A stretch of 36,668 bases of DNA from Acidimicrobiia bacterium (GTDB lineage: Bacteria; Actinomycetota; Acidimicrobiia; Spongiisociales; ZC4RG35), in assembly GCA_029240695.1 (NCBI GenBank), contig JARDZU010000003.1:1-36668 (forward strand), in the 5' to 3' direction. Both the position numbers and the translations under genes were made by a program. Positions 2,061-33,565 of this stretch are shown piece by piece. Each line of letters begins with the position of its first letter. Within the stretch, counting starts at the first letter, position 1. The notes beneath the pieces were generated by a model, which saw nothing but the letters and a program-made list of their open reading frames with translations, did no database searches and was not told the origin of the DNA.

Positions 2061-3296
2061 TCAGAGTTCGGCCCGCTCCTCGAGGAAGCGTCTTTCTGTC
2101 TCGTTGGCGGTGAGCGAGAGGGCACGATCCAGTGCCTCACGCGCCTCTGTCTCCTCTCCCAATTCGCGCAGCATCTCGCTTCGGGCGAGATGAAAGGCGT
2201 GATACCCGTCGAGAGCTCCTGCCAGATCACCCAACGCGGCCAGGCCTTCGGTGGCGCCGAATGCCTCGAACACCGCGACCGCACGGTTGAGCCGGACCAC
2301 CGGTGCGGGGTGGATCGACGTCAGGCGGTCGTACAACTCGACGATATGGGCACGGTCGGTCGCATCTGTCGACGGCGCCATGGCGTGTTGTGCAGCTATC
2401 TCGGCCTGCAGCTGATAGGGCCCGGGTCGCCCGAGCCGCCGAGCACGTTCCAGTACGTCGAGGCCGGCGCCGATCGCTCCTGTGTCCCAGCGTGAGCGAT
2501 CCTGATCACGAAGCAGGACCAGTCGGCCCAACTCGTCGACCCGGGCATCACGACGGCTGTGCTGGAGCAGCATCAGGGCGTGGAGCCCGAGGACCTCTGG
2601 TTCGTCGGGCATCAGGTCTGATATCAACGAGGCCAGCCTGATGGCTGATTCGGCGAGGTCGGTCCTGACCAGGTCATCACCCGTCGTGGCGAAGTAACCC
2701 TCGTTGAACACGAGATACACGACGGCGAGCACCGCCGAGAGCCGGTCGCCCAGGTCGACGCCGGTGGGGACCCGGAACGGGATGCCGGCGTCCCGAATTT
2801 TCGATTTGGCCCTGACCAATCGCTGGGCCATGGTCGGCTCTGGGACGAGAAAGGCGTGAGCGATCTCGAGTGTGGTGAGCCCTCCGACGGTGCGCAGGGT
2901 CAGGGCGACCTGCTTGTCGGTCGCCAGCGACGGGTGACAACAGGCGAAGAGCATCTCGAGACGGTCGTCTCCGAGGGATAGGTCGGTCACGCCTTCGGGA
3001 GGGCTGTCACGGTCTGCCTTCTCGTAACCGGCCAGGATGGAGGTCTTCCTCACCAGCGTGGCCTGGCGGCGGATGCGGTCGATGCCCCGACGTTGGGCGA
3101 CCGCCGAAATCCAGCCGGGCGGATTGTCGGGGATTCCCTTCTCCGGCCAGCTGCGGAGCGCCTCGACAAGAGCATCCTGAACCGCTTCCTCGGCCAGGTC
3201 GATGTCGCGGAATCGAGTGGCCAGCCCGGAGAGGACCACGGCATACGACTCCCTGAACACCGCCTCGATGACATCCTTGTGGTCTACCGAGCTCAT
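2061..3296 (-). CDS. ECF42-type RNA polymerase sigma factor with C-terminal TPR-like domain
   Basis: A protein of 411 residues, about twice the size of a normal ECF sigma factor. Sigma region 2 is seen in [20 protein letters not shown] and [20 protein letters not shown]. Region 4 is seen in [22 protein letters not shown] followed by [11 protein letters not shown]. The rest is a helical, TPR-like extension with the typical LVFNEGY and [14 protein letters not shown] stretches. This is the ECF42 architecture, in which the C-terminal domain is thought to replace a classical anti-sigma factor. ECF42 genes usually neighbour DGPF/YCII genes, but none is adjacent here. The track starts at a TTG (3305); the ATG at 3296 is preferred because it begins the conserved N-terminus, although GGAGG sits very close to it. 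It is convergent with mobA. Confidence 0.88.
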
Positions 3297-3357: not shown

Positions 3358-3367
3358 TCCTACCCGC

Positions 3368-3416
3368 GAACCTGAGGTTCTGCGTCACGTATTTGTTACG
3401 GAGAGCCTCAGCTTCG
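3368..3416. repeat. 49-bp palindromic element, copy A
   Basis: The outer arms GAACCTGAGG and CCTCAGCTTCG are 10 bp with one mismatch. A degraded inner dyad sits between them. Length, arm spacing and the core ATTTGTTACG match copy B. It lies between the divergent sigma factor and gamma-carbonic anhydrase genes. Confidence 0.75.
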
Positions 3417-3437
3417 TCTCAGACAGGGCCCCCGGTT

Positions 3438-3486
3438 GAACCTGAGGCGGTTGGTAACGCATTTGTTACGTGCAACCTCAGGTTCG
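3438..3486. repeat. 49-bp palindromic element, copy B
   Basis: The outer arms GAACCTGAGG and CCTCAGGTTC pair perfectly (10 bp). The inner dyad GTAACG/TGTTAC pairs at 5 of 6 positions around a 4-base centre. It starts exactly 70 bp after copy A and ends 30 bases before the GTG of the gamma-carbonic anhydrase gene. Confidence 0.8.
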
Positions 3487-3515: not shown

Positions 3516-4040
3516 GTGCCACTCCACCTGCCCGAGCCGAAGATCGATCCTGGGGCTTTCGTGGCTCCGGGGGCCCACATCTACGGCGATGTGACCCTTC
3601 GACACGGGGTTTTCGTTCTCTTTGGGGTGGTGATTCGGGCGGAGCTCGATCGGGTCGAAGTCGGTGCAGAGACGAACATCCAGGACAACTCGGTCCTCCA
3701 CTGTGACGAAGACGTGCCGTGCGTGCTCGGGAGGCGGGTGACAGTCGGCCATGCAGCCGTCGTCCACGGTGCCCTGGTCGGGGACAGGTGTCTCATCGGG
3801 ATCGGCGCCAGGCTGCTCAACCGCTCACGTCTGGGCGAAGGCGCCTGGCTCGCCTCGGGCTCCGTCCTTACCGAAGGCAAGGACGTACCACCCTGGACCC
3901 TGGGGCTGGGCATCCCGGCGAAGCCGGTGCGGGAGCTGACCGAGGCAGAGATTCAGAGAGCCGACGAGGGCGTCGACCACTACCAGGAGCTCATGGAGAG
4001 GTACCGCGGGCACCTCGGAGCCGGATCAGGGACTGAATAG
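3516..4040 (+). CDS. Gamma-carbonic anhydrase family protein (left-handed beta-helix)
   Basis: A 174-residue protein of the YrdA/PaaY/CaiE type. Repeated hexapeptide turns (GAFVAPGAHIYGDVTL, GARLLNRSRLGEGAWL) form a left-handed beta-helix. NIQDNSVLHCD and VGHAAVVHGA supply the histidines expected at the zinc site shared between trimer subunits. Family members are reversible CO2 hydratases or thioesterase-like proteins, so the reaction is not certain. The ORF track runs from 3093, but the region before 3516 holds the palindromic repeats, and the GTG at 3516 begins at the family's usual N-terminus. It precedes purF by 32 bases. A role in CO2/bicarbonate supply for purine synthesis is conceivable but is inference. 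Confidence 0.88.
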   Translation: MPLHLPEPKIDPGAFVAPGAHIYGDVTLRHGVFVLFGVVIRAELDRVEVGAETNIQDNSVLHCDEDVPCVLGRRVTVGHAAVVHGALVGDRCLIGIGARLLNRSRLGEGAWLASGSVLTEGKDVPPWTLGLGIPAKPVRELTEAEIQRADEGVDHYQELMERYRGHLGAGSGTE

Positions 4041-6478: not shown

Positions 6479-7269
6479 AATTCACCGGCGCCTCGGCGGT
6501 GGCACCCGCCGGACAGGGGATCTGGAAAGCAGACGTACAGCCGGACTGGGACATCTTCGGGATCGCGAACGGCGGCTATCTGATGGCCATCGCCGCTCGG
6601 GCGATGTCAGCCGCGGCTGGGGGCCGTCTTCCGGTGAGCGTCACCGCCCATTTCACGAGGCCGGTCGCGGCAGGCGCTGTCATGGTGACGGTGGACCCTG
6701 TGAAAGCGGGTCGCACTTTCTCCACCCTGCGGGCCACCTTGACCGCCGAATCCGATTCCATCTCGCTCCTGGGCAGTTTCGCCGAGCCACAATCCGGCGC
6801 CGTCGAGCCCCTCTATGCGGCAGCCGCTCCACCGGAGATGCCGCCACCAGAGGAGTGCATCCGCGCCGTTCCCTCGGTGGACGGGCCCCTTCCCCCACCG
6901 CTGATGGCCCAGTTCGAAGAGCGAATCCACCCCGAAGACGTCGGGCCGCTGCAAGGTGAGCCCAGCGGCACAGCCCAGATGCGAGGGTGGTTTCGACTCC
7001 ACGATGGTGAGCCGCTGGACGCCTTCACGCTGCTGCTCGCAGCCGACTCCTTCCCACCCGCGGTCTTCAACGCCGACCTTCCCCTCGCCTGGACCCCGAC
7101 CCTGGAGATGACCACCCAGATCCGCGGCGTACCCGTCCCGGGTTGGCTGAGGTGTCAGTTCTCGACGCGTTTCGTGACCGGCGGCCTGCTCGAGGAAGAC
7201 GGGGAGATATGGGACGAGGCCGGCCACCTCGTCGCCCTATCCCGTCAGTTAGCCCTCGTCCCCCGCTGA
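6475..7269 (+). CDS. TesB-like acyl-CoA thioesterase (double hotdog)
   Basis: A 264-residue protein resembling the TesB/acyl-CoA thioesterase II double-hotdog family, which hydrolyses acyl-CoA in the cytoplasm. The N-terminal hotdog is seen in WDIFGIANGGYLMAIAARAM followed by SVTAHFTRPV. The second half has the typical RGWFRLHDGEPLDAFTLLLA and SFPPAVFN, then WTPTLEMTTQIRG. The substrate is unknown. Translation is probably coupled to purM by the GTGA overlap, an odd partner for a purine gene. The 3' end overlaps the convergent adenine deaminase gene by 21 bp. Confidence 0.8.
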   Translation: MKFTGASAVAPAGQGIWKADVQPDWDIFGIANGGYLMAIAARAMSAAAGGRLPVSVTAHFTRPVAAGAVMVTVDPVKAGRTFSTLRATLTAESDSISLLGSFAEPQSGAVEPLYAAAAPPEMPPPEECIRAVPSVDGPLPPPLMAQFEERIHPEDVGPLQGEPSGTAQMRGWFRLHDGEPLDAFTLLLAADSFPPAVFNADLPLAWTPTLEMTTQIRGVPVPGWLRCQFSTRFVTGGLLEEDGEIWDEAGHLVALSRQLALVPR

Positions 7270-30345: not shown

Positions 30346-30356
30346 CCTCAGGTTCG
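30346..30356. repeat. Isolated half-arm of the 49-bp element
   Basis: CCTCAGGTTCG is identical to the right end of copies B and C and covers the stop codon of the class V aminotransferase, whose start lies in copy C. No partner arm is found 48 bp away, so it may be a remnant or chance. Confidence 0.3.
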
Positions 30357-31544
30357 CAGCATCGCGGCCAGAGCCGAATAATCGTCAGCGGTGTTGTGGA
30401 GATGGGCGGAGATGCGCAGCAATTGATGGGGCCATCGCGGCCAGTTCATGACGATGGTCGAAAAGCCGGCATCGAAGAGGTCGTCCATGATCGGGGACAG
30501 CTCGCCACCGGGGTCCGGGCCGGTGGCATCGGGTAGGACCACGGAGGCCATGGAGCCCACCATCCCGTCAGGCGCCGGCAAAGGGGTTGCGACCGTCTCC
30601 GAGATCAGATGCCTCCCATATAGAACGAGGTCGTGGTTGCGCTTCATCACGGCGTCCCAACCCCCGGCCTCCAACCCGCCCACCAGACGCAGGGCGTCGG
30701 GCACAACCGCCCAGGCGCTGAAATCGTCCGTGCCCAGCCAATCGAACAGCGCGTGGTACCGGTCCTTCGGGGCCTCGACCTCGGCGTTGTATCCGTGGGA
30801 GATGACAGCCGGCACCGTCATCTCGATCCGGTCGGCCCTCGAGTGGAGGAAAGCCGCCCCCTTGGGGGCGCACACCCACTTGTGCAGGTTCCCGGTGTAC
30901 CAGGACGACCCCAGGTCATCGATCGTCAATGGAACCTGACCCGGGCCATGCGCCCCGTCGACGACAACCGCGATATCGGGCTCGAGAGCCGCAACGATGT
31001 CCTGGATCGGAAATACAAGGGCCGTCGGTGACGTGACATGGTCGATGACGGCCAGCTTCGTCTTCGGCGTAACCGCGTCGAGGACCGCCTCGGTGACCTG
31101 ATCTGGGCTTTCGATCGGAAACGGCACCCGGGCCACCACCACGTCGGCCCCGGTCCGCTCGCCGGTGAACCGGAGGATCTGACGAACCGCGTTGTAGTCA
31201 TGGGCGGTGGTCAGCAACTGGTCGCCGGGCCGGAGCAAGGGCGCGAATGATTGAAGAACCGATGCGATCCCGGTGGTCGCGTTCAGCACCGGTGCCAGGC
31301 TGACTGGGTCGGCGCCCACGAATTCGCCAACAGCCTCCCGAGAACGGTCCATGGCAGGCTGCAGCTCCCTCCACACAAAACGGCTGGGATCGGCCTCGAA
31401 CCTGCGCCTCCAATCCGTCTGCAACTCGAGCACATCGTTCATCACCGCACCGAACGAGCCATGGTTGAGATGCCGGACTCCAGGATCAAGCGCCCATGTC
31501 GGTCGACCCTGCTCGTCATGCGAACCTGATGCAGTTCGTTGCAT
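30348..31544 (-). CDS. Class V aminotransferase-fold enzyme (isopenicillin N epimerase-like)
   Basis: A 398-residue PLP enzyme of the CefD/NifS-like fold. LNHGSFGAVMNDVLE near the N-terminus, VLNATTGIASVLQ, DGAHGPGQVPL (PLP Asp and following His) and WYTGNLHKWVCAPKGAAFLH (Schiff-base Lys in NLHKW) are typical of the isopenicillin N epimerase-like group, which includes many racemases and desulfurase-like enzymes of unknown substrate. The only in-frame start that keeps the N-terminus is the ATG at 31544, which lies inside palindromic element C, 6 bases after a TACGTT box. Confidence 0.83.
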   Translation of the reverse strand: MQRTASGSHDEQGRPTWALDPGVRHLNHGSFGAVMNDVLELQTDWRRRFEADPSRFVWRELQPAMDRSREAVGEFVGADPVSLAPVLNATTGIASVLQSFAPLLRPGDQLLTTAHDYNAVRQILRFTGERTGADVVVARVPFPIESPDQVTEAVLDAVTPKTKLAVIDHVTSPTALVFPIQDIVAALEPDIAVVVDGAHGPGQVPLTIDDLGSSWYTGNLHKWVCAPKGAAFLHSRADRIEMTVPAVISHGYNAEVEAPKDRYHALFDWLGTDDFSAWAVVPDALRLVGGLEAGGWDAVMKRNHDLVLYGRHLISETVATPLPAPDGMVGSMASVVLPDATGPDPGGELSPIMDDLFDAGFSTIVMNWPRWPHQLLRISAHLHNTADDYSALAAMLRT

Positions 31545-31570
31545 ATGTGCAACGTAGAGCCTCAGGTTCG
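31522..31570. repeat. 49-bp palindromic element, copy C
   Basis: The outer arms GAACCTGATG and CCTCAGGTTC pair at 9 of 10 positions; the inner dyad GTTGCA/TGCAAC is perfect around a TATG centre. It has the same length and geometry as copies A and B, 28 kb away. It ends 30 bases before the M3 peptidase start and covers the start codon and -10 box of the divergent aminotransferase gene. Confidence 0.8.
31551..31556 (-). promoter_or_regulatory. -10 box of the class V aminotransferase
   Basis: TACGTT on the minus strand is followed by 6 bases and the ATG at 31544. The box lies within palindrome copy C. Confidence 0.45.
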
Positions 31571-31600: not shown

Positions 31601-33565
31601 ATGACGAATTTGGATTTTGGGTTCTCTCAGGTGACTGCGGACAAGGTGAGCGAGGGGATGGACGAGGCGCTCGAGGGTGCGCAAAAGCTCCTCGAGGCTC
31701 TCGTCGCGCCAAAAGGGACCCGGACGTTTGAGAACACCATGTTGCCCCTCGACCAGATCGCCGATTTGCTCTCCAAGGCCAATGCCACCCACGCCTTCAT
31801 GGGCTATGTCCACCCCGAGAAGGAGGTCCGCTCTCAGGCCAAGGCCGCCGAGGAGAAACTGGAGACCTTCGGCGTGGAAATGGTCTTCCGCGACGACCTC
31901 AATGCAGCCATCAAGGAGTACGCCGCCACCGATGAGGCGGAGAGCTTGGAGGGCGAAAAGGCTCGTCTGGTCGAGTTCACCCTCAGAGATCTGCGTCATG
32001 CCGGCCACGAGCTCTCACCCGAGGCGAGAGCCAGGGTCAAGGAGAGGACGCAGCGCCTTGTCGAGCTCGGGGTCCGCTTCCAAGAGAACATCGACGAATG
32101 GGAGGACCACATCCTCGTCGACCCGGAGGAGCTGGATGGTCTGCCTCCCAGCTTCGCCGAGTCGCTCGAGACCGACGCGGAGACGGGCAAGCTCAAGGTG
32201 ACTCTCGCCTACCCCCATCTCATACCATTCATCGAGAACGCCACACGCCGCGATCTGCGCGAAGAGTTGTCGTTCAAGTTCAACACACAGGCGGTCGAGG
32301 CCAACCGGAAGATCCTGGAGGAGGCCCGCGACCTGCGTCATCAGATTGCGGAGGAGTTCGGCGTCCCCAGCTGGTCCCATCACAGGCTCGAGGACAGGAT
32401 GGCCAAGGATCCGGAACGGGTGGCCGCGTTCTATGAAGACCTCGTGCCACCACTCACCAAGCAAGGCGAGATCGAACTAGCTCACTTGGGTGAGCTGCTC
32501 CAAGCCGACACAGGCGACAGCCAGATCCAGACCTGGGATTGGCGTTTCTACGACACCCAGCAGCGTCGCACCGACTACGGCGTCGATCCCTTCGAGGTGG
32601 CCAACTACTTCCCGCTCGACTCGGTGCTCGGCGGGATGTTCGATTTGGTCCAGGAGACTTTCGGCCTCGAGTTCCGCGAAACCCAGGATCCGGACGTCTG
32701 GCATCCCGATGTGCGTCTGTTCGCCATCCACGACGCCGGGAGCGGCGACGAGCTCGCCCACTTCTATCTCGATCTCTTCCCGCGCGAGGGCAAGTACGGC
32801 CATGCCGCCGAGTTCCCATTGGTAATGAGCCGACGACTGGAGGACGGTTCATATCAGAACCCCGTGTGCGCCATGGTCGCCAACTTCACCAAGCCGACCG
32901 CCTCGGCTCCATCCTTGCTCCAACACGGCGAGGTCGAAACGCTCTTCCACGAGTTCGGCCATGTCCTCCACCAGAACCTGGGCAGGACCGAGCTCGCCAG
33001 GTTCGCCGGGACCAGCGTGGAGAGAGACTTCGTGGAGGCGCCGAGTCAAATCATGCAGCATTGGGTGTGGCGCGCCGACGTTCTCAGCCGTTTCGCCCGC
33101 CACCACCAGACCGGTGACCCCATCCCCGATCACCTGGTCGAGCAACTGGTCGCCGCTCGCCAGCTCAACGTGTCCATCCACCAGCTCCGCCAGCTCCAAT
33201 ACGGGTGGTGGGACCAGACGATCCACGGGACCGACCCAGAGATCGACCTCGACATCGTCCTCCGGGACGGGGCAACGCTGGGCCTTATCCCGTTCCACGA
33301 GGGCACGTTCGCCCTTGCCTCGTTCGGCCACCTCATGGGGGGTTACGACGCCGCCTATTACGGGTACATGTGGTCCGAAGTGTTCGGAGACGACATGTTT
33401 TCCCGGTTCGAGGATGAGGGAGTCACCAACCCGGAGGTCGGAATGGCCTACCGGCGTGAGGTGTTGGAAAAGGGCGGCTCGGTAGATGCCGATGAGATGC
33501 TCAGTGCTTTTCTGGGTCGTGAGCCCGACAACACCGCATTCCTGAGGAAGCTCGGCATCGAGTGA
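31601..33565 (+). CDS. M3-family zinc oligopeptidase (thimet/Dcp-like)
   Basis: A cytosolic metallopeptidase of 654 residues that degrades short peptides. The HExxH motif is in LLQHGEVETLFHEFGHVLHQ and the third zinc ligand in RDFVEAPSQIMQHWV. Upstream motifs FYLDLFPREGKYGHAAEF and the conserved C-terminal GYDAAYYGYMWSEVFGDDMF with its Tyr residues fit the M3A group (thimet oligopeptidase, oligopeptidase A, Dcp). The N-terminal half is helical. The track extends to 31496; that region holds repeat copy C and the promoter, so the ATG at 31601 is chosen. Confidence 0.93.
   Translation: MTNLDFGFSQVTADKVSEGMDEALEGAQKLLEALVAPKGTRTFENTMLPLDQIADLLSKANATHAFMGYVHPEKEVRSQAKAAEEKLETFGVEMVFRDDLNAAIKEYAATDEAESLEGEKARLVEFTLRDLRHAGHELSPEARARVKERTQRLVELGVRFQENIDEWEDHILVDPEELDGLPPSFAESLETDAETGKLKVTLAYPHLIPFIENATRRDLREELSFKFNTQAVEANRKILEEARDLRHQIAEEFGVPSWSHHRLEDRMAKDPERVAAFYEDLVPPLTKQGEIELAHLGELLQADTGDSQIQTWDWRFYDTQQRRTDYGVDPFEVANYFPLDSVLGGMFDLVQETFGLEFRETQDPDVWHPDVRLFAIHDAGSGDELAHFYLDLFPREGKYGHAAEFPLVMSRRLEDGSYQNPVCAMVANFTKPTASAPSLLQHGEVETLFHEFGHVLHQNLGRTELARFAGTSVERDFVEAPSQIMQHWVWRADVLSRFARHHQTGDPIPDHLVEQLVAARQLNVSIHQLRQLQYGWWDQTIHGTDPEIDLDIVLRDGATLGLIPFHEGTFALASFGHLMGGYDAAYYGYMWSEVFGDDMFSRFEDEGVTNPEVGMAYRREVLEKGGSVDADEMLSAFLGREPDNTAFLRKLGIE

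What the first reader, a model, noticed from the sequence alone, without database searches (positions are those of the whole stretch)
3368..3486. A repeated 49-bp two-tier palindrome at divergent gene starts (copies A and B here, copy C at 31522-31570)
Three elements share exactly 49 bp, outer arms GAACCTGAGG/CCTCAGGTTC, a 6-base unpaired step on each side, a 6-bp inner dyad (best GTTGCA-TATG-TGCAAC) and the flanking G. Copies A and B are 70 bp apart; copy C is 28 kb away. All lie between divergent genes, and copies B and C both end 30 bases before the start codon of the plus-strand gene, with the right arm over the expected -35 region. Centre sequences vary while the arms are kept, as expected for a binding site with two nested half-sites or for a structured repeat family. 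I know no described element of this form.
Basis: seen in the sequence. Interest (0 to 1): 0.78.

Follow-up and report, generated by a model that had tools for sequence, protein, structure and literature searches.

The report
REP-like palindromes tied to AbiEi-nuclease gene
The repeated 50-base palindrome is not a gene switch peculiar to divergent genes but one copy of a genome-wide family of short palindromes that also brackets, on both sides, a gene for an uncharacterised DNA-binding nuclease, which looks like a previously undescribed kind of bacterial repeat-spreading system.

Summary
The palindromes are real: 50 bp each, arms CGAACCTGAGG/CCTCAGGTTCG. The genome (Acidimicrobiia) has exactly 15 copies at 11 intergenic loci, none in controls. 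They are not promoter-specific: 5 loci divergent, 3 convergent, 3 codirectional. In relatives they sit about 11 bp after stop codons and favour convergent junctions. Four of the 11 loci are doublets spaced 70-72 bp; relatives have doublets too, and one 122-bp doublet is duplicated at two sites in one genome.

Two copies bracket a single 302-aa gene (P0001), an AbiEi-type winged-helix protein fused to an EDxHD/Vsr (DUF559) nuclease domain. Homologues across Actinobacteriota are likewise bracketed by matching terminal repeats, often ~49-bp palindromes of unrelated sequence: 21/25 in the family and 30/48 elsewhere, against 1-10% of controls. Terminus similarity tracks protein similarity. The 11-N28-11 geometry matches the published AbiEi operator (11-N27-11).

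Best reading: paired AbiEi-type binding sites, dispersed REPIN-like and served by an AbiEi-nuclease instead of a RAYT; no Y1/RAYT gene exists in the family. Binding and mobilisation are inferred, not shown. The operator idea is half right: a two-tier binding site yes, a divergent-promoter operator no.

The parts
3367..3416 (.). Copy A: 50-bp two-tier palindrome, first half of a doublet
   Evidence: CGAACCTGAGG TTCTG CGTCACGTATTTGTTACG GAGAG CCTCAGCTTCG, 48.7 bits, E 1.9e-12
3417..3436 (.). 20-nt doublet spacer; length kept (20-22) across the four doublets of this genome, sequence not
3437..3486 (.). Copy B: second half of the doublet, perfect 10-bp outer arms
   Evidence: 45.9 bits, E 1.4e-11
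31521..31570 (.). Copy C: solo 50-bp palindrome with the best inner dyad (CGTTGCATATGTGCAACG)
   Evidence: 52.9 bits, E 8.7e-14
2061..3296 (-). Left neighbour of A: ECF-type sigma factor with DUF6596
   Evidence: PF20239 2.1e-37, Sigma70_r2, Sigma70_r4_2
3516..4040 (+). Right neighbour of B: hexapeptide-repeat, gamma carbonic anhydrase-like
30348..31442 (-). Left neighbour of C: class V aminotransferase
31601..33565 (+). Right neighbour of C: peptidase family M3
   Evidence: PF01432 1.3e-125

Best explanation
The 50-bp palindrome is a pair of AbiEi-type half-sites (outer 11-bp arm read by a winged helix, inner motif read by the rest of the protein, arranged head to head around a central AT). 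It is dispersed in intergenic DNA as a REPIN-like, non-autonomous repeat, both solo and as doublets of about 120 bp. The likely reader is P0001 (same genome, contig C75:5671-6576), an AbiEi-like protein fused to an EDxHD/Vsr-superfamily nuclease domain (DUF559), whose single-copy gene lies between two copies of the same palindrome. I propose that P0001 binds two palindromes and cuts DNA at or near them, so that the doublet (and formerly the gene-bearing ~1.07-kb unit) is copied or moved into intergenic sites next to stop codons, in the way a RAYT serves REPs. Shown: the family, the doublets, the bracketing of the gene, co-divergence of protein and termini, one duplicated doublet, conserved active-site residues. 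Inferred: binding, cutting, mobilisation.
For: Exactly 15 copies in the genome, all intergenic. Two of them bracket P0001 (C75:5605-5654 and 6626-6675), and the same holds in G012; one flank is seen at contig-edge copies in G025 and G003. TIR test: 21/25 family homologues at or above the 99th percentile of 331 control genes; 14/28 elsewhere in the phylum (control 3.9%); 16/20 more (control 10.5%). The termini are often palindromes with a length peak at 48-49 bp: 24/112 flanks of 44-52 bp against 18/550 control flanks. Termini track the protein, not the genome: Mantel r 0.35, 0/2000 permutations; paralogues in one genome have different termini. Genomes with at least 4 dispersed copies have a homologue of at least 44% identity in 8/9 cases against 1/25 of the others (Fisher 4e-6). 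Duplicated 122-bp doublet in G015, about 93% alike with unlike flanks. Protein: AbiEi over residues 3-192 (PADLOC E 3.6e-32); fold matches AbiEi 6y8q (E 5.9e-9) and I-Bth0305I 3r3p; profile matches 3r3p and Vsr; D236, E247, H254, D263 invariant and E204 near-invariant in 35 sequences. Published AbiEi site: 11 bp-N27-11 bp, 23-3-23 (PMC3985639). No Y1/RAYT in 34 family genomes.
Against: No transposition event, clean empty site or target duplication was shown. The A/B site is element-free in both congeners, but a ~300-bp ORF lies there instead. The gene is largely vertical and keeps one orthologous site beside a VanY gene in several genera, so it may be domesticated and immobile. One homologue (G114, 30% identical) has near-perfect 50-bp palindromes on both sides but no other copies in its genome. 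G029 has 14 copies in the stretches read but no close homologue was found (75% complete genome). An upstream palindrome alone could be explained by autoregulation. The gene caller is simple and several genomes are drafts.
Confidence: 0.68

Rival explanations
1. Operator of a conventional transcription regulator acting at divergent promoters.
For: In this genome 5 of 11 loci are divergent and B and C end about 30 bp before start codons. In own-genome copies the arms are conserved without compensatory changes, as for a protein-read DNA site.
Against: 6 of 11 own loci and most loci in relatives are not divergent; 8/16 loci in G015 are convergent against 14% of junctions, p = 8e-4. Neighbouring genes have no common theme. 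The same sites bracket a nuclease gene on both sides.
Confidence: 0.07
2. Bidirectional transcription terminators or mRNA 3'-end hairpins.
For: The element hugs stop codons and convergent junctions. In genus g11 the inner stem shows compensatory changes: 18 cells against 9.5 shuffled, 0/500.
Against: Divergent copies; no U-tract seen; in own copies the inner stem pairs badly and does not covary (pair 20/31 unpaired in 10 of 15); bracketing of the nuclease gene; orderly doublets. Co-option as terminator at some sites is possible.
Confidence: 0.1
3. Ordinary MITE family of an unrelated transposase, with the AbiEi-nuclease gene as passenger.
For: Termini look like TIRs and the doublets like internal-deletion derivatives.
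Against: P0001-type genes fill the ~1.05-kb interval between the termini in the loci examined; termini co-diverge with that protein; no Y1 transposase in the family. Other transposase families were not searched.
Confidence: 0.12

Closest known systems
REP/REPIN sequences with RAYT (TnpA-REP)
   Same: Short intergenic palindromes, solo or as inverted doublets; one full-length gene flanked by its own palindrome type; gene mostly vertical; each gene has its own palindrome type, several types per genome (PMC3116915, PMC6006769).
   Different: No HUH/Y1 enzyme in any of 34 family genomes; enzyme is AbiEi winged helix plus EDxHD/Vsr nuclease; palindromes are ~49 bp two-tier sites without a GTAG tag; tens of copies, not hundreds.
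AbiEi antitoxin and its operator (S. agalactiae AbiE; Rv2827c of M. tuberculosis)
   Same: AbiEi-like residues 3-192; site geometry 11-N27-11 / 23-3-23 close to 11-N28-11; arms read as independent half-sites.
   Different: A nuclease domain is fused, no toxin partner was seen next to the gene (only one neighbour scanned), and the site is dispersed over the genome and lies on both sides of the gene.
EDxHD homing endonucleases (I-Bth0305I) and Vsr
   Same: C-terminal domain matches 3r3p, 3hrl and Vsr by profile and fold, with E, D, E, H, D conserved.
   Different: Not in an intron or intein; the gene lies between two intact palindromes rather than splitting one site.
MITEs / insertion sequences
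   Same: Terminal inverted repeats around one ORF, gene-less derivatives.
   Different: Each terminus is often itself a palindrome; no known transposase; gene kept at one orthologous site; no target duplication seen.

Membership tests
REP/REPIN with RAYT | Y1 (HUH) transposase gene, PF01797 | tested here: not met
   0 of 34 family genomes, 5 of 14 control genomes positive
REP/REPIN with RAYT | dispersed extragenic palindromes, singlets and doublets | tested here: met
   15 copies, 11 loci, 4 doublets at 70-72 bp
REP/REPIN with RAYT | dedicated gene flanked by the same palindromes | tested here: met
   P0001 and homologues
REP/REPIN with RAYT | GTAG-type tag next to the palindrome | tested here: not met
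   no such conserved tag in the aligned copies and their 6-bp flanks
AbiEi operator | ~49-bp inverted repeat, ~11-bp conserved outer arms | tested here: met
   11-N28-11, 50 bp; literature PMC3985639; length peak 48-49 bp in homologues
AbiEi operator | bound by the AbiEi-type protein | not testable with these tools
   needs EMSA or ChIP
AbiE toxin-antitoxin system | adjacent AbiEii nucleotidyltransferase toxin | tested here: inconclusive
   the VanY neighbour was scanned (PF02557); the other neighbour was read only as an ORF, not scanned
EDxHD/Vsr nuclease | conserved E, D, H, D active site and fold | tested here: met
Classical IS/MITE | target-site duplication and empty sites | tested here: inconclusive
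   A/B site free of palindromes in G001 and G002 but region rearranged; no duplication seen

The most novel reading that the evidence does not exclude
AbiEi-DUF559 (EDxHD) proteins, widespread in Actinobacteriota and annotated only as antitoxin-like or unknown, are the enzymes of a new class of REP-like mobile element: each reads its own ~49-bp two-tier palindrome, which brackets its gene and, in some genomes, is scattered as solo and double gene-less copies.
Probability: 0.55. Interest if true: 0.92.

Novelty: categorically new. Interest (0 to 1): 0.85.

Why it matters
REP/RAYT is, to my knowledge, the only described case of dispersed bacterial palindromes kept with a dedicated single-copy endonuclease. 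A second, unrelated enzyme doing the same would show that this lifestyle evolved more than once. It would give a function to a large family of unknown proteins (DUF559 with AbiEi) and make the link between a long DNA site and its nuclease directly testable. No held paper links DUF559 or AbiEi-nuclease proteins to repeats or mobility; most subscription papers and preprints were not searchable.

Tried and rejected
RNA element: no Rfam match in the window; own copies show no covariation, though g11 copies do, so a hairpin role is not fully excluded. REPIN/RAYT membership: rejected, no Y1 transposase. Phylum-wide spread of this exact sequence: rejected; hits outside the family had 3 mismatches and no inner motif. 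Dispersed copies of the G114 palindrome: none beyond the two flanking ones. Strict ungapped palindrome score of the flanks was only a weak discriminator; the inverted-repeat and arm-length tests were clearer. Phage or plasmid carriage: no phage, one full-length plasmid hit. Literature searches for a mycobacterial-type palindrome and for DUF559 gave nothing relevant.

Full report
CHECK OF THE OBSERVATION. The three elements are present at the stated places. Counting the outer C/G they are 50 bp: CGAACCTGAGG-N5-CGTNRCNNATNNGYNACG-N5-CCTCAGGTTCG. The exact-arm pattern finds B alone in the window, with 0 in 100 shuffles. In the whole 2.89-Mb genome (G000, 282 contigs), 13 copies have up to 3 mismatches in 22 fixed bases and the reversed control has none. 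A symmetric 50-column sequence profile finds exactly 15 copies, scores 36-55 bits, and nothing else up to E = 10.

SETTING IN THE GENOME. The 15 copies lie at 11 loci. With a simple codon-model gene caller I find all loci intergenic: 5 divergent (window A/B, window C, C53, C75 right, C210), 3 convergent (C240, C75 left, C258) and 3 codirectional (C28, C276, C278). Window C was scored 'inside' only because the caller took an upstream ATG of the peptidase ORF; at C210 the caller also placed a start inside the element. Four loci are doublets spaced 70, 71, 71 and 72 bp, with spacers of 20-22 nt that are not alike. Own-genome arms are 85% alike between copies, linkers 43%, inner 18 bp 70%, flanks 29%. 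So arms and inner motif are kept and the rest is not.

DISTRIBUTION. A scan of 397 genomes of the phylum finds the exact form only in the own GTDB family; the named collection finds 48-bp exact-arm forms in Acidimicrobiia MAGs SZUA-217, CSMAG_3164, SB0661 and SB0664. A second profile built from genus g11 reveals the family widely: matches count both strands, so about 53 copies in G015, 23 in G012, 19 in G003, 16 in G029, 13 in G013, 11 in G025, 6 in G031. Arms and inner motif differ by lineage, but length, two-tier layout, the central AT and the doublet habit persist. Doublet spacings are 70-71 in G003, 62 (most), 72, 73 and 53 in G015, and 62 in G013. In G015 two doublets 103 kb apart share about 122 bp at roughly 93% identity, spacer included, with unlike flanks beyond the outer arms. 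That is direct evidence that the doublet is duplicated as a unit.

WHERE IT SITS IN RELATIVES. In codirectional loci the element lies a median 11 bp after the stop codon and 59 bp before the next start; at convergent loci most distances to stops are under 20 bp. In G015, 8 of 16 loci are convergent against 42 of 293 junctions of at least 60 bp (p = 8e-4), and 1 of 16 is divergent against 94 of 293 (p = 0.018). Some sites are shared across genera, for example the 'LLDGWS' convergent site in G012, G013, G025 and G029, and the VanY site in G000, G012 and G025. The A/B site itself is free of palindromes in both congeners G001 and G002, where a short ORF lies instead.

THE LINKED GENE. At C75 the two copies bracket one gene, P0001, 302 aa. 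The same is true of its homologue in G012, and one flank is visible in contig-edge copies of G025 and G003. I then asked whether homologues in general are bracketed. Local alignment of the upstream flank with the reverse complement of the downstream flank gave scores at or above the 99th percentile of 331 control genes for 21 of 25 family homologues (mean 47.6 against 17.6). Among 28 loci from the rest of the phylum, 14 scored at least 26 against 3.9% of shifted windows; among 20 further loci, mostly in complete genomes, 16 against 10.5%. The termini are unrelated in sequence between lineages (for example AACTTCGGGTGATTAGTGTCGC-CATA-GCGACACTAATCACCCGAAGTT in L276 and TTTTTATGACGTAAAACCGCCC...GGGCGGTTTTACGTCATAAAAA in L246) but are often palindromes of 48-49 bp: 54 of 112 flanks have an 11-bp arm pair against 80 of 550 controls; in 44-52 bp it is 24 of 112 against 18 of 550. 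A stricter ungapped palindrome score separates the groups only weakly, so bracketing by matching repeats is firmer than palindromicity at every locus.

CO-DIVERGENCE. Similarity of termini tracks protein identity (Mantel Spearman 0.35, 0 of 2000 permutations, largest permuted value 0.26), while paralogues within one genome carry different termini. Genomes with at least four dispersed copies have a homologue of at least 44% identity in 8 of 9 cases, against 1 of 25 of the others (Fisher 4e-6). This table was made after seeing the data, and partial genomes blur it.

THE PROTEIN. Pfam: AbiEi_4 (7-54) and DUF559 (234-300). PADLOC's AbiEi models match residues 3-192 at 3.6e-32. AlphaFold2 on a 35-row alignment gives pLDDT 91; the best solved folds are AbiEi (6y8q, E 5.9e-9) and the EDxHD homing endonuclease I-Bth0305I (3r3p). 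The sequence profile reaches 3hrl, 3r3p and Vsr. D236, E247, H254 and D263 are invariant and E204 nearly so, which is what an active nuclease of this group needs; that 3r3p is of the EDxHD type is from my own knowledge. No phage carries the protein and one plasmid does at full length. No Y1/RAYT transposase exists in the 34 family genomes.

MECHANISM. AbiEi of S. agalactiae binds 11 bp-N27-11 bp inverted repeats that extend to 23-3-23, with the winged helix proposed on the conserved 11 bp and the C-terminal domain on the rest (PMC3985639); Rv2827c binds two pairs of 23-bp repeats (PMC7319586). The window's element, 11-N28-11 with a conserved inner motif, has the same plan. I therefore read each palindrome as two AbiEi-type half-sites, and propose that the fused nuclease acts on DNA held between or at such sites, spreading doublets. 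Own copies show no compensatory pairing and so look protein-read; g11 copies do show it, which a symmetric protein site, templated repair of a palindrome, or a hairpin could each produce. Shown: sequences, bracketing, co-divergence, one duplicated doublet. Inferred: binding, cutting, movement, and direction of cause.

COMPARISON AND VERDICT. It works like REPIN/RAYT (PMC3116915, PMC6006769) but is not a member: the defining Y1 enzyme was tested and is absent. The binding site resembles an AbiEi operator but is dispersed and two-sided. I found no description of such a system in the held literature, which lacks most subscription papers and bioRxiv-only work. I score novelty as categorically new for the enzyme-palindrome pairing, with the caution that mobility is not demonstrated.

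Noticed in passing
window 30346-30356: A lone CCTCAGGTTCG arm overlaps the stop codon of the aminotransferase gene at a convergent junction; possibly a decayed element. Five of the 18 exact 11-mers in the genome lie outside the 15 copies.
   Followed up: partly
L283 and L284 (G002, G001), A/B orthologous interval: The congeners have a ~300-bp ORF where the own genome has the doublet; that ORF ends ...CGAACCTGA, the same nine bases as the element's arm.
   Followed up: partly
L074 1877-2116 and L090 5265-5509 (SB0664, SB0661 MAGs): Arrays of related palindromes and arms repeated at short spacing with a different core (GCGTCA..), a higher-order arrangement of the family.
   Followed up: no
L077, L079, L080 (three Saccharopolyspora species): A 39-40 bp palindrome GAACCTGAGGTTYACAC...GTRAACCTCAGGTTC found in three species; different length, perhaps an operator.
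   Followed up: no
L241, L250, L251, L236, L238, L254: Another terminus type, AACCC[AT]GGGTT, is shared by a related group of AbiEi-DUF559 genes in several genera, including a second copy in the window's own genome (C214:7821-8690).
   Followed up: partly
window 2061-3296: The gene left of copy A is an ECF-type sigma factor with DUF6596; no link to the other element-bearing loci was found.
   Followed up: no
L110 1725-1774 and L219 2970-3090: Element upstream of a selA-like gene in two genera (58% identical proteins), a shared divergent site.
   Followed up: no
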